DNA of 64,000 nucleotides, from contig PGZH01000015.1 in NCBI GenBank assembly GCA_002840155.1, positions 62,001 to 126,000 on the forward strand, in the 5' to 3' direction. Positions 41,885 through 53,476 of the stretch are shown here, piece after piece; positions within the stretch are counted from its first letter, which is position 1; every line of letters begins with the position of its first letter. The stretch comes from Gammaproteobacteria bacterium HGW-Gammaproteobacteria-13. Its GTDB lineage: Bacteria; Pseudomonadota; Gammaproteobacteria; Pseudomonadales; Pseudomonadaceae. The notes beneath the pieces are model-generated. The model ran no database searches and was not told where the DNA came from. It saw only the letters and a program-made list of their open reading frames with translations. A program made the translations under genes and the position numbers.

Positions 41885-43144
41885 TTAGTTAGGACGGAAA
41901 TCCATCAGCAAACGCAGGTAGGAAAGCATGTTCTTGCCGCCAACGGTGCCCTGGTAACCGTGGCTATCGAACTGGCTGCTTTTGAACAGATCGACGCGAA
42001 AGCGCGGGTTGGTTTCATAAGTACGCCCCAGAGTCGTGGTCACGCGGCTGTCGAACAGATCGGCGCTGACTTTGACGAACTCGCGCGGTTTGCGCCGGCC
42101 AGCGCTGGTGCTGTTGTTCGGGCTGCTGAAAATATCGGTGGAGGCGGTCATCGCCGAGCTGTAGCGCTCGCGGCCGCGCAAGCTGGTCTTGCCGCTGGCG
42201 ATGACGAACTGGCCGGTTACCGGGCGATAGCGATCACCCGCCGTCAGGTAGCTACCCAGCACGTCATACAAGGCGTAGCTGCTGCCGGTGCCGCGTTCCT
42301 TGTTGCGCAGATCGAAAATAAACACGCCGTTTTCACCAACAACCTCCATTTCCACCTGCCCCAAGGTTGCGTTGTTCTGCACCAGCAACGCGGTGTTTTC
42401 ATCGACGCCGAAGGCAAACGGCACCTGGGTGTGATCTGCCAGGCGCACGATGCGGCCCTGACGGCCGCGCTCGCTGAAGTGGGTATCGAGCAAACCGTAA
42501 TTGAAGAAGCCAAAACCGCCCTGCATGTCGTAGGACAGGTCATCGCCACCCGGCGAGGTGTACACGCCATAACGCAGGCCGTTATAACTTTCGCCGCCGG
42601 TGACCATCGGCCCCTGCACCATGATCGCAGTGCCGGCGCTGGTACCCGCCAATACCGCGCCAGCGTTATGCCGCGCACGAATCGCCGCCAAGGCTGGGCT
42701 GTCGGCACGGGTCGCGGTTTGCAGGGTCTGGGTCAGGCGCGACTGGTCGCCGCCACCAAAAAAGAACCCGGTCATGCTGTTGATCTGCGCGACCACCTGC
42801 GGGTTACTGTTATTGCTTATTTTGTCCAGATCAATGGGAATCCACTGCGCATCGACAGCGCCGTAGGTCTTCAGCAACTGGGCATAGAACGCACCATTGG
42901 CTTTGGAGTTGGCGGCATTGGCCGTACCCGCTGCCGGGTCGGCACTTTCCGGGATCGAAGCAGCGGTAATAACGCCGATTCGCGCCTGGCCACTGCCACC
43001 AGCCAGCTGGATCAGGCGCTGATAGATGGCCGCGTTGTCATCCTTGAGGCCGCCGCCAATCAATATCAGCGGGCCGGCGCTGTAACCGGTGATGGGTAGT
43101 AGGGCGAGCAGTAAAGCACTGCAACGCAAAAATGATCTGATCAT
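41885..43144 (-). CDS. Secreted cyanophycinase (peptidase family S51, CphE-like)
   Basis: 419 residues from ATG 43144, with signal peptide (LRCSALLLALLPITGYSA). It is close in size and layout to extracellular CphE cyanophycinases of pseudomonads, which cut multi-L-arginyl-poly-L-aspartate to beta-Asp-Arg dipeptides. LILIGGGLKDDN, FFFGGGDQSRL, nucleophile Ser169 in VLAGTSAGTAIMVQG, and GFGFFNYGLLDTHFSERGRQGR carry the S51 active site. It is the last gene of a leftward set with an OprD porin, binding protein and a second S51 protein. Confidence 0.88.
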   Translation of the reverse strand: MIRSFLRCSALLLALLPITGYSAGPLILIGGGLKDDNAAIYQRLIQLAGGSGQARIGVITAASIPESADPAAGTANAANSKANGAFYAQLLKTYGAVDAQWIPIDLDKISNNSNPQVVAQINSMTGFFFGGGDQSRLTQTLQTATRADSPALAAIRARHNAGAVLAGTSAGTAIMVQGPMVTGGESYNGLRYGVYTSPGGDDLSYDMQGGFGFFNYGLLDTHFSERGRQGRIVRLADHTQVPFAFGVDENTALLVQNNATLGQVEMEVVGENGVFIFDLRNKERGTGSSYALYDVLGSYLTAGDRYRPVTGQFVIASGKTSLRGRERYSSAMTASTDIFSSPNNSTSAGRRKPREFVKVSADLFDSRVTTTLGRTYETNPRFRVDLFKSSQFDSHGYQGTVGGKNMLSYLRLLMDFRPN

Positions 43145-43253
43145 GGGTATGAGTTCTCCGATGTGCGCTCGGCGCACGCTTGTTGTGAGAGTTGTAAAAC
43201 GGGAACTGCTGCAGATAACGCCGCGTGGCTCTCTGGGTGGCTGACTCCTTCGG

Positions 43254-44018
43254 CTAATACACCGTGAATTGTTTGAAGTACTGCTTCTCGATGCGCTTGT
43301 AGACGCCGTTGCTGAGAATCACGCTGAGCGCTCTATCCAGCCGCTCACGCAATAGGTGATCGCCCTTGCGCACGGCGATGCCCTGGCCTTTGCCAAAGTG
43401 TTTGGGGGCGACCACCTTGTTGCCGACCTGCTCAAAACCCTGGCCCTGGGCCGTGTCGAGAAAGCCGAAATAGCCGGACACCGCGTCATCCAGCACCAGG
43501 TCGACGTGCCCTGCGCCGAGCGCCTGGTACATGCCCTCGGCGGAATCGAAGCGCAGCAGCTCGGTGTGCTGCTGGTATTTGTCAGTGAGGAAGCGGTCAT
43601 AGGTGGTGTCGCGCTGCACACCCAGGCGTTTACCGGCAATGCGCCTTGGGGTGATGATCACCTGATTGACCAGGCCCTTGCGGGCGAAGAAGAACGCCGG
43701 GGTTTGCGCATATTTGGCGGTGAAATCGACCAGCTCGGCGCGTTGTGCAGTAATCGACATGGACGCCAGAATCAGGTCCGCACGCTGCTCATTGAGTGCC
43801 GGAATCAAATCGTCCCAGGCAAACCTGACCAGCTGACAATCGGCCACCATGGCCTGACACAGGGCCTGGGCGATATCGACATTGAAGCCGCGCAATTGAC
43901 CGCTCGCATCGATTTGCTCAAAGGGCGGAAACTGCCCTTCCATGGCGATACGCAGGGGCTGCGCCTGAACGCTGTTCAGCAGCATCAAGCCCAGCATAAA
44001 TAGGGTTGCTCGTAGCAT
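43254..44018 (-). CDS. Family 3 amino-acid binding protein (basic amino acid/dipeptide type)
   Basis: 254 residues from ATG 44018, seven bases after AAGGGG. Signal peptide LRATLFMLGLMLLNSVQAQ, then a PBP fold: LRIAMEGQFPPFEQIDASGQLRGFNVDIAQALC, WDDLIPALNEQRADLILASMSITAQRAELVDFTAKY, KRLGVQRDTTYDRFL, HFGKGQGIAVRKGDHLLRERL. The DxxLxALxxxxxDxxxxSMSxTxxR pattern is that of Arg/Lys/ornithine/His binders. No permease is adjacent in this arm; it could feed the permeases at 49086-50486. Confidence 0.85.
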   Translation of the reverse strand: MLRATLFMLGLMLLNSVQAQPLRIAMEGQFPPFEQIDASGQLRGFNVDIAQALCQAMVADCQLVRFAWDDLIPALNEQRADLILASMSITAQRAELVDFTAKYAQTPAFFFARKGLVNQVIITPRRIAGKRLGVQRDTTYDRFLTDKYQQHTELLRFDSAEGMYQALGAGHVDLVLDDAVSGYFGFLDTAQGQGFEQVGNKVVAPKHFGKGQGIAVRKGDHLLRERLDRALSVILSNGVYKRIEKQYFKQFTVY

Positions 44019-44083
44019 TTCGGTGCCCCTTGCAAGCGCTGTCAAAGCGACAGCCTGGGGTCAGAGGCCAGGCTCCAAGCCGA

Positions 44084-51608: not shown

Positions 51609-51628
51609 CAACAAGAGAATCCGCTGCC

Positions 51629-52396
51629 ATGTACACCTTGCAAATCGACAACCTGCACAAACGCTATGGCACCCATGAAGTGCTCAAGGGCGTATCCCTG
51701 ACCGCCAAGGCCGGCGATGTCACCAGCATCATCGGCTCCAGCGGCTCGGGTAAGAGCACCTTCCTGCGCTGCATCAACCTGCTGGAGCAACCGCACAGCG
51801 GGCGCATCCTGCTCAATAACGAAGAGCTGAAACTGCAACCGAGCCGAGCAACCGGCGCACTCAAGGCCAGCGATAGCAAGCAGCTACAGCGCATGCGCTC
51901 ACGCCTGGCCATGGTCTTCCAGCACTTCAACCTGTGGTCGCATATGAGCGCCCTGGATAACGTGATGGAAGCGCCGGTGCATGTACTGGGTATGAGCAAA
52001 AAAGACGCCCGCGAGAAAGCCGAACACTACCTGGCGAAAGTCGGCGTCGCCCATCGCAAGGACGCCTACCCCGCGCATATGAGCGGTGGTGAGCAGCAGC
52101 GCGTGGCCATCGCCCGCGCCCTGGCCATGGAACCTGAGGTGATGTTGTTTGATGAGCCAACCTCGGCGCTGGACCCGGAGCTGGTCGGCGAGGTGCTCAA
52201 GGTCATGCGCGACCTGGCCGAGGAAGGCCGCACCATGGTGGTGGTCACCCACGAAATGGGCTTTGCCCGCGAAGTGTCCAACCAGTTGCTGTTCCTTCAT
52301 CAAGGCCGCGTCGAAGAAAGCGGCTGCCCGCGCGAGGTGCTGGCCCAGCCCAAGTCCGAGCGCTTGCAGCAGTTTCTCACCGGCAGCTTGAAATAG
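51629..52396 (+). CDS. Basic amino acid ABC transporter ATPase, HisP/AotP type
   Basis: 255 residues from ATG 51629; earlier in-frame starts belong to the preceding gene. Walker [11 protein letters not shown]-loop [22 protein letters not shown], signature [19 protein letters not shown], Walker [20 protein letters not shown], switch His in [14 protein letters not shown]. The HisP-specific insert with [17 protein letters not shown] is present. It powers the two upstream permeases. Confidence 0.95.
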
Positions 52397-52528
52397 ACGG
52401 AGCCTGTAGGCCGACCGCGCGCAATGCCACAGCCGCGGCCGGCTTCGGATACACTTCAGCCGCAACGACCCAGGCCTGCCCCGACCCGGCGCACACGCCC
52501 AACCCTTCAACGTGCTGAAAGCCCATCC

Positions 52529-53476
52529 ATGCCGACTTCTGCCAAGAACGTAACTGTCTACGCCGCCCCGGTGATGCGCAAACTGGCGGAAATCGCCCCG
52601 CACCTGCAGCCCTCTCTGCGCAAGGTGGCCGACTTTATCCTGCGCCACCCGCTGAAAGCCGCAACCCTGACCATTGAGGAAATGGCGGTGGAAACCGCCA
52701 CCTCGGCGGCCGCCGTCAACCGCCTGGCCAAGGCCATCGACCTGGGCGGCTATACCGGGCTGAAAGCCGAGCTGGTCAGCACCCTGCAGCAGATGGTGTC
52801 GCCGGTGGACAAGCTGCGCAACGAACTGGCCCATCGCCCGGACGGTGCCTTCGGCCTGCACGAGCAGGTGCAGATCGCCAGCAGCAACCTGGCCACCGCC
52901 GGCGCCAATAACAGCGCGGACACCTTCGAAGCTTTTGTAAGCTGCCTGATCCAGGCCCGCAAGATCTACATCCTCGGCTTCGGCAACAGCGCCTATATGG
53001 CCGGCCTGGCAGCCGCCAACCTGGTGCCGTTCTGCGCCGATGCCACGGCCGTGAGCATGGAAGGCGGTAACGAAAACGCCGCGTATCGCCTGGCGGCCAT
53101 CACCGAACAGGACGTGCTGCTGTCGATCTCCCTGCCGCGCTACTCACTCGATACCCTGCAGCTGTCGCGCTTTGCCAGCGAACGCGGCGCGACCGTGCTG
53201 GCGATCACCGATTCGCCCGCCTCGCCGCTGACCACCATCGCCAAACACGCGCTGTTTGCCCCAGCCGATCACCCGGTGCTGATCAGTTCCAACACCTCGG
53301 TGCTGGCGCTGATCGAAGGCCTGGTCGCCGGCGTGATGGCACGCAACAAGGAAGCGGTGCAGCTGGCCGCCGAACTGACCGAAAGCGTGATGTCCTACCT
53401 GCACGTAGCGGGCAACGACAAGCCGGTGCGCAAGCCGATCAAACGCCGCACCAGCACCACGCCGCGGCAGAGCTAA
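52529..53476 (+). CDS. RpiR-family (HTH + SIS) transcriptional regulator
   Basis: 315 residues from ATG 52529. An N-terminal RpiR HTH (about 15-90: IAPHLQPSLRKVADFILRHPLKAATLTIEEMAVETATSAAAVNRLAKAIDLGGYTGLKAEL) and a SIS sugar-phosphate-type domain (about 130-265: SCLIQARKIYILGFGNSAYMAGLAAANL, VLLSISLPRYSLDTLQLSRFASERGATVLAITD). In P. aeruginosa the aot operon ends in argR instead. The replacement by an RpiR-type protein suggests a different inducer, possibly a cyanophycin breakdown product. Likely regulator of both divergent arms. Confidence 0.9.
   Translation: MPTSAKNVTVYAAPVMRKLAEIAPHLQPSLRKVADFILRHPLKAATLTIEEMAVETATSAAAVNRLAKAIDLGGYTGLKAELVSTLQQMVSPVDKLRNELAHRPDGAFGLHEQVQIASSNLATAGANNSADTFEAFVSCLIQARKIYILGFGNSAYMAGLAAANLVPFCADATAVSMEGGNENAAYRLAAITEQDVLLSISLPRYSLDTLQLSRFASERGATVLAITDSPASPLTTIAKHALFAPADHPVLISSNTSVLALIEGLVAGVMARNKEAVQLAAELTESVMSYLHVAGNDKPVRKPIKRRTSTTPRQS

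What the first reader, a model, noticed from the sequence alone, without database searches (positions are those of the whole stretch)
41885..53476. Divergent locus that looks like a complete cyanophycin-to-arginine utilisation system
Leftward: SLH-tailed S51 protein, small unknown protein, OprD porin, binding protein, CphE-like cyanophycinase. Rightward: binding protein, HisQ/HisM permeases, AotO-like zinc deacylase, HisP ATPase, RpiR regulator. Cyanophycinases release beta-Asp-Arg, so secretion, outer-membrane entry, periplasmic capture, uptake and a possible final hydrolase lie side by side. Motifs are seen directly; substrate and system are inference. An isoaspartyl dipeptidase gene is not in the window.
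Basis: partly seen in the sequence, partly recalled or inferred. Interest (0 to 1): 0.8.

Follow-up and report, generated by a model that had tools for sequence, protein, structure and literature searches.

The report
Pseudomonas locus for eating cyanophycin
Two back-to-back gene arms in a Pseudomonas genome look able to cut the bacterial nitrogen-storage polymer cyanophycin outside the cell, take up the pieces and split them into aspartate and arginine; most parts are of known kinds, but one is an odd second cyanophycinase-like protein with an S-layer-type anchor tail.

Summary
Confirmed: eleven genes in two divergent arms at the stated place. The "AotO-like deacylase" is of the cyanophycin-dipeptide-hydrolase (CphZ) type, so a likely final hydrolase is present; the genome has no IaaA match and no IadA over cut-off. 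CphE carries all nine residues named for the proven P. alcaligenes enzyme. In 23 of 23 distinct loci the S51-SLH gene sits beside the right arm's binding protein and RpiR gene. The converse fails: 26 of 36 genomes with the RpiR arm lack an S51 gene. So the right arm is an independent uptake-and-hydrolysis module, a paralogue of the aot operon with another regulator, and a depolymerase arm is joined to it in 10 of 199 sampled Pseudomonas genomes. Conserved operator-like dyads lie between the arms. Unexpected: the SLH-tailed S51 protein keeps Ser and His but has Thr for the catalytic Glu in all 24 distinct sequences seen, although it is the only S51 gene found in three genomes. Whether it is a rewired enzyme or a polymer-docking protein is open. 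A conserved 107-aa protein matches no family. Cyanophycin loci and CphZ are known kinds; this layout is a variant I did not find described. Substrate, secretion and regulation are inferred.

The parts
41885..43144 (-). CphE-type secreted cyanophycinase, 419 aa
   Evidence: S51 38.5 bits; TIGR02069 125.8 bits, just under cut-off 126.6; all nine CphEal residues at constant offset
43254..44045 (-). Second family-3 solute-binding protein without permeases of its own in this arm (ATG at 44018 also possible)
   Evidence: SBP_bac_3 116.2 bits; best solved relative an arginine-binding protein 3tql
44188..45471 (-). OprD-family outer-membrane porin
   Evidence: PF03573 517.4 bits; closest solved chain Porin D 2odj
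45550..45873 (-). Orphan protein, 107 aa, conserved, function unknown
   Evidence: 14-row alignment with fixed start; no weighty Pfam, NCBIfam, PDB or fold match
45941..47710 (-). S51 protein with three SLH-like C-terminal repeats; Ser160 and His211 kept, catalytic Glu replaced by Thr243
47824..47847 (.). Operator-like dyad TTTTCA-N13-TGAAA on the side of the left arm
47984..48031 (.). Operator-like imperfect palindrome TGACA...TGTCA overlapping a TTGACA box, on the side of the right arm
48219..48995 (+). AotJ-like solute-binding protein
   Evidence: TIGR01096 277.1 bits, over cut-off 256.35; closest solved chains are Lys/Arg/Orn-binding proteins
49071..49775 (+). HisQ/AotQ-like permease
   Evidence: 89% identical to the copy at G000 C11
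49791..50486 (+). HisM/AotM-like permease
   Evidence: 87% identical to the copy at G000 C11; not itself put to the family libraries
50496..51608 (+). CphZ-type (AotO-like) zinc hydrolase, likely beta-Asp-Arg dipeptidase
   Evidence: PF24827; 8ein/8eip E 1e-81; H38, E41, H168, E240 in 45 of 45 chosen rows
51629..52396 (+). HisP/AotP-like ATPase
   Evidence: PRK10619 417.6 bits, under cut-off 466
52424..53476 (+). RpiR-family regulator with SIS domain (true start may lie near residue 35)
   Evidence: HTH_6 and SIS; orthologues in 36 of 199 genus genomes

Best explanation
The locus is a scavenging system for extracellular cyanophycin built from two modules. Right arm: a paralogue of the aot operon (binding protein, two permeases, CphZ-type hydrolase, ATPase) under an RpiR regulator; it imports beta-Asp-Arg, probably also arginine, and splits the dipeptide in the cytoplasm. 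Left arm: CphE, exported by Sec and probably type II secretion, cuts the polymer; the SLH-tailed S51 protein works with it at the envelope as a second, altered hydrolase or as a polymer-docking protein; the OprD porin passes dipeptides through the outer membrane; the second binding protein adds periplasmic capture. RpiR switches both arms through dyads between them. Shown here: gene content, residues, conservation, dyads. Inferred: substrates, secretion route, RpiR binding, roles of the SLH protein and the orphan.
For: CphE residues match CphEal. CphZ type: 8ein/8eip E 1e-81 and invariant site residues; the literature assigns such proteins to beta-Asp-Arg/Lys. No IaaA, no IadA over cut-off. 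No cyanophycin synthetase over cut-off, best 193.5 against 850 bits, so use of outside polymer. Two type II secretins over cut-off. S51-SLH beside the binding protein and RpiR in 23 of 23 loci, CphZ type in 22 of 23. All 10 S51 genomes are among the 36 RpiR genomes (chance 1.2e-8 if genomes were independent). Dyads in 23 of 25 and 22 of 26 upstream regions, shuffles at most 1.
Against: No substrate was tested. TIGR02069 is just missed by CphE (125.8 against 126.6) and missed by the SLH protein (116.9). 26 of 36 right arms have no S51 gene. 11 of 23 loci lack the permeases and ATPase. The SLH protein lacks the catalytic Glu. The best solved sequence relative of both S51 proteins, 7uqv, is titled a pseudo-CphB although it keeps all residues tested, so residues alone do not prove activity. 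Whole-site likeness of the two operators is weak: 12 of 500 shuffles do as well.
Confidence: 0.7

Rival explanations
1. The right arm is a general arginine or beta-aspartyl-dipeptide uptake operon, and the S51 genes beside it act on some other beta-aspartyl peptide; cyanophycin is not the natural substrate.
For: 26 of 36 right arms stand without S51 genes. The closest solved binding proteins bind Lys/Arg/Orn. The best solved S51 relative is a pseudo-CphB.
Against: CphE has the full CphEal residue set, length and spacing. [quoted passage not shown] S51-SLH genes never lack the binding protein and RpiR beside them (23 of 23).
Confidence: 0.2
2. The SLH-tailed S51 protein is not a hydrolase but an envelope-anchored polymer-docking protein; CphE alone is the depolymerase.
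For: Thr in place of the catalytic Glu in all 24 distinct sequences seen (27 rows), with Arg178 changed and an EETS insert; three relatives without SLH tail keep the Glu.
Against: Ser160 and His211 are invariant in the 18-row alignment. In G049, G131 and G184 it is the only S51 gene found. The invariant Glu pair of the insert could supply an acid; the model is too uncertain there to tell.
Confidence: 0.4
3. The locus recycles cyanophycin that the cell makes itself.
For: Cyanophycinase genes often cluster with cphA1 elsewhere (PMC10206079).
Against: No synthetase over cut-off in the genome; both S51 proteins start with signal-like sequences by eye.
Confidence: 0.02

Closest known systems
Extracellular cyanophycinases CphEal (P. 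alcaligenes DIP1) and CphE (P. anguilliseptica BI)
   Same: Length 1260 bp, signal peptide by eye, Ser-His-Glu and pocket residues, Thr for the Gln of CphB
   Different: Known as single enzymes in the passages I saw; here inside a two-arm locus with a second S51 protein
Cyanophycin dipeptide hydrolase CphZ / AotO and the aot operon
   Same: Gene order, hydrolase type, site residues
   Different: RpiR gene instead of the AraC-type regulator gene that follows the genome's other copy; joined to a depolymerase arm
Cyanophycin utilisation locus of Ben Hania et al. 2017, as told in PMC10206079
   Same: Cyanophycinase, dipeptide hydrolase and transporter genes together, for scavenging
   Different: That one has IadA, in a Bacteroidetes strain; this has a CphZ-type hydrolase, OprD porin, HisQMP-type ABC system and SLH-tailed S51 protein
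SLH-domain surface proteins (B. anthracis Sap, SpaA)
   Same: C-terminal SLH fold, 3pyw E 1.5e-7
   Different: Carried by an S51 protein in a Gram-negative; what it would bind is unknown

Membership tests
CphE cyanophycinase (41885-43144) | Ser-His-Glu triad and pocket residues named for CphEal | tested here: met
   all nine at constant offset; MAFFT misplaced Arg178, pairwise HMMER places it
CphE cyanophycinase (41885-43144) | NCBIfam TIGR02069 cut-off | tested here: not met
   125.8 against 126.6 bits; so no claim of membership in that curated model
CphE cyanophycinase (41885-43144) | Hydrolysis of cyanophycin | not testable with these tools
   needs assay
Cyanophycinase, S51-SLH protein (45941-47710) | Catalytic Ser and His | tested here: met
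Cyanophycinase, S51-SLH protein (45941-47710) | Catalytic Glu (Glu201 of CphB) | tested here: not met
   Thr in 25 of 25 rows and two more by eye; not filed as a cyanophycinase
SLH domain (45941-47710) | PF00395 over cut-off and SLH fold | tested here: met
   43.5 against 20.8 bits, two stretches; Foldseek 3pyw
CphZ (50496-51608) | Sequence and metal/catalytic residues of the solved relatives 8ein/8eip | tested here: met
   E 1e-81; aligned residues identical; 8eip differs from 8ein by Glu to Ala at the site of E240. That these entries are CphZ is recalled; their title is succinylglutamate desuccinylase
CphZ (50496-51608) | Specific hydrolysis of beta-Asp-Arg | not testable with these tools
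   needs assay
aot operon | Order binding protein, Q, M, O, P | tested here: met
   same order as the copy at G000 C11
aot operon | AraC-type ArgR gene at the end | tested here: not met
   RpiR gene here; AraC-like gene follows the C11 copy (named by eye)
OprD porins | PF03573 match | tested here: met
   517.4 bits against cut-off 25
OprD porins | Passage of beta-Asp-Arg or basic amino acids | not testable with these tools
   needs transport assay

The most novel reading that the evidence does not exclude
Pseudomonas has split cyanophycin use into a wider-spread, RpiR-controlled dipeptide-uptake module (users without a depolymerase, living on others' digestion) and a rare depolymerase arm. That arm carries a new kind of SLH-anchored S51 protein with a rewired active site, which in some species is the only polymer-attacking enzyme, plus an orphan accessory protein.
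Probability: 0.35. Interest if true: 0.68.

Novelty: new variant of a known kind. Interest (0 to 1): 0.5.

Why it matters
It offers a candidate full route from an outside polymer to arginine and aspartate in a Gram-negative, with parts separated by natural variation: 26 sampled genomes with the uptake arm only, four of 23 loci without CphE, eleven of 23 without their own permeases and ATPase. That makes sharing and cheating in polymer scavenging testable. It also suggests an RpiR regulator that may sense a dipeptide or amino acid rather than a sugar phosphate, and sets a clear enzymology question: what does an S51 protein do after losing its catalytic Glu but not its Ser and His?
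Full report
Observation. The window is part of contig C7 of a 4.55 Mb, 26-contig genome. Of 19 named loci found with the S51-SLH protein, 17 are titled Pseudomonas and two come from one bin titled Gammaproteobacteria bacterium, so I take the genus of the window to be Pseudomonas. Between listed gene starts and ends the gaps are 9-75 bp in the right arm and 67-142 bp in the left arm; the arms are 508 bp apart.

Left arm, CphE. The CphE-like protein has an ATG at 43144 with GGAGAA in front and a 1260-bp frame, the length given for cphEal of P. 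alcaligenes DIP1. In the passages I saw of PMC3235067 the authors propose Ser171, His224 and Glu251 as triad, list Gln136, Asp222, Arg228, Arg230 and Arg233 as pocket residues, and note Thr223 where CphB has Gln. All nine are here at a constant offset of two (allowing for one extra leading residue in that script). TIGR02069 gives 125.8 bits, just under its cut-off of 126.6.

Left arm, SLH-tailed S51 protein. It matches S51 and SLH in Pfam. The predicted model (mean pLDDT 70) matches cyanophycinases (7uqv, E 1.7e-14) and SLH domains (3pyw, E 1.5e-7) by Foldseek. Against CphB, Ser132 and His174 are kept, but Glu201 is Thr in 25 of 25 aligned rows (the cut fragments L028 and L042 were left out; L109 and L111 repeat L040 and L031) and in two more rows read by eye (L149 repeats L032): 24 distinct sequences. 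Arg178 is Ser or Thr, and an EETS insert follows the His. Three relatives without SLH tail, from other genera of the order, keep the Glu. Against a dead enzyme: Ser160, His211 and the insert's Glu pair are invariant in 18 rows, and in G049, G131 and G184 this is the only S51 gene found. The active-site part of the model is under pLDDT 50. Caution: the best solved sequence relative of both S51 proteins is titled pseudo-CphB, yet keeps every residue tested.

Left arm, others. The porin is an OprD-family member, closest to Porin D 2odj; that OprD passes basic amino acids is recalled. The 107-aa orphan keeps its start in 14 rows, is modelled at pLDDT 85, and has no weighty family or fold match.

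Right arm. The genome holds a second copy of this gene order on C11 (72-89% identical gene by gene), followed by an AraC-like regulator gene and preceded by an acetyl-CoA-synthetase-like gene (named by eye). That this is the aot operon with argR is recalled plus gene order. So the window's arm is a paralogue with an RpiR gene in that place. The AotO-like protein matches 8ein/8eip at E 1e-81; H38, E41, H168 and E240 are identical in 45 of 45 chosen rows. [quoted passage not shown] That the PNAS paper shows AotO of P. aeruginosa to be such an enzyme, and aot to allow growth on beta-Asp-Arg, is recalled; the paper is not held. The genome has no IaaA match and no IadA over cut-off, and two type II secretins over cut-off.

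Conservation. The 17 named loci with full flanks, the window, and G014, G049, G131, G148 and G194 make 23 distinct loci; repeats were recognised by equal contig length. Present in them by tblastn: S51-SLH 23 (the query), AotJ-like binding protein 23, RpiR 23, CphZ type 22 (not in L036), orphan 22 (not in L040), OprD 20 (not in L040, G049, G131), CphE 19 and second binding protein 19 (not in L027, L040, G049, G131), permeases plus ATPase 12. Loci without permeases presumably borrow those of another system (inference).

The refutation test. In 199 genus genomes, own included, genes like the hydrolase occur in 184 (E 1e-60, which may take in other paralogues), the RpiR gene in 36 (E 1e-80) and S51 genes in 10. 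All 10 are among the 36. The other 26 have the full right arm, 26 of 26, and no S51 gene in the fetched 7-16 kb nor, with these two queries, elsewhere in the genome. In a tree of 45 chosen hydrolase rows these 26 are one side of a branch (100/99); the window's row lies near them with moderate support (91/90), while L032, L034 and L038 group with three AotO-type rows (100/97) (root at midpoint). So the uptake module stands alone in most genomes that have it, and the S51-SLH gene depends on it. In 390 order genomes, 6 matched the S51-SLH profile at E 1e-40: three in the genus, own included, and three without the tail in other genera.

Regulation. The 508-bp gap holds TTTTCA-N13-TGAAA at 47824 and an imperfect 47-bp palindrome at 47985-48031. 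The dyad with spacing 12-14 is found in 23 of 25 S51 intergenic rows and 22 of 26 right-arm-only upstream regions, at most 1 in shuffles; the outer TGAYA/TGTCA pair in 16 of 25 and 20 of 26. With spacing exactly 13 the counts are 13 of 25 and 20 of 26. Rows are related and two are repeats, so the counts overstate independence. The dyad is absent from the fetched 20 kb around the C11 copy, and the genome has four exact TTTTCA-N13-TGAAA sites, one of them here. The palindrome overlaps a TTGACA box, though the consensus scan reports no promoter there. RpiR as the binder is inference.

Verdict. A scavenging locus for extracellular cyanophycin is the best reading. The kind is known; the two-module layout with RpiR, OprD and the SLH-tailed S51 protein is a variant that I did not see described in the listings. 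What is open and most interesting is the SLH-tailed protein with its lost acid, the orphan, and the separable uptake module.

Noticed in passing
window 53628-54509: Outer-membrane protein gene, Tsx-like by eye, follows the RpiR gene; it is also next to it in 9 of 19 named loci. It may belong to the uptake route.
   Followed up: partly
window 4001-14000: G+C falls to 0.50-0.56 against about 0.60-0.67 around 20-30 kb, with a large DNA-methyltransferase-like frame at 5234-8095 (by eye): looks like an acquired island.
   Followed up: no
window 14465-15826: Transposase-like frame, IS1182 type by recall, at the edge of the low-G+C stretch.
   Followed up: no
window 19243-21380: Adjacent frames that look like tRNA 2-selenouridine synthase and selenophosphate synthase (by eye).
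   Followed up: no
L032, L034, L038: In this group the hydrolase in the cyanophycin locus clusters with AotO-type rows, not with the window's; the genomes behind L034 and L035 (G177, G063) have a single match each. The aot-type arm may have been recruited into the locus there.
   Followed up: partly
L092 4227-5537: A right-arm-only locus has an OprD-like gene, 56% identical, about 1.6 kb beyond its RpiR gene.
   Followed up: no
G049, G131, G184 (L107, L108, L109): Reduced loci with the SLH-tailed S51 protein as the only S51 gene found in the genome, and a shorter SLH tail of 557-residue proteins: natural test cases for its activity.
   Followed up: partly
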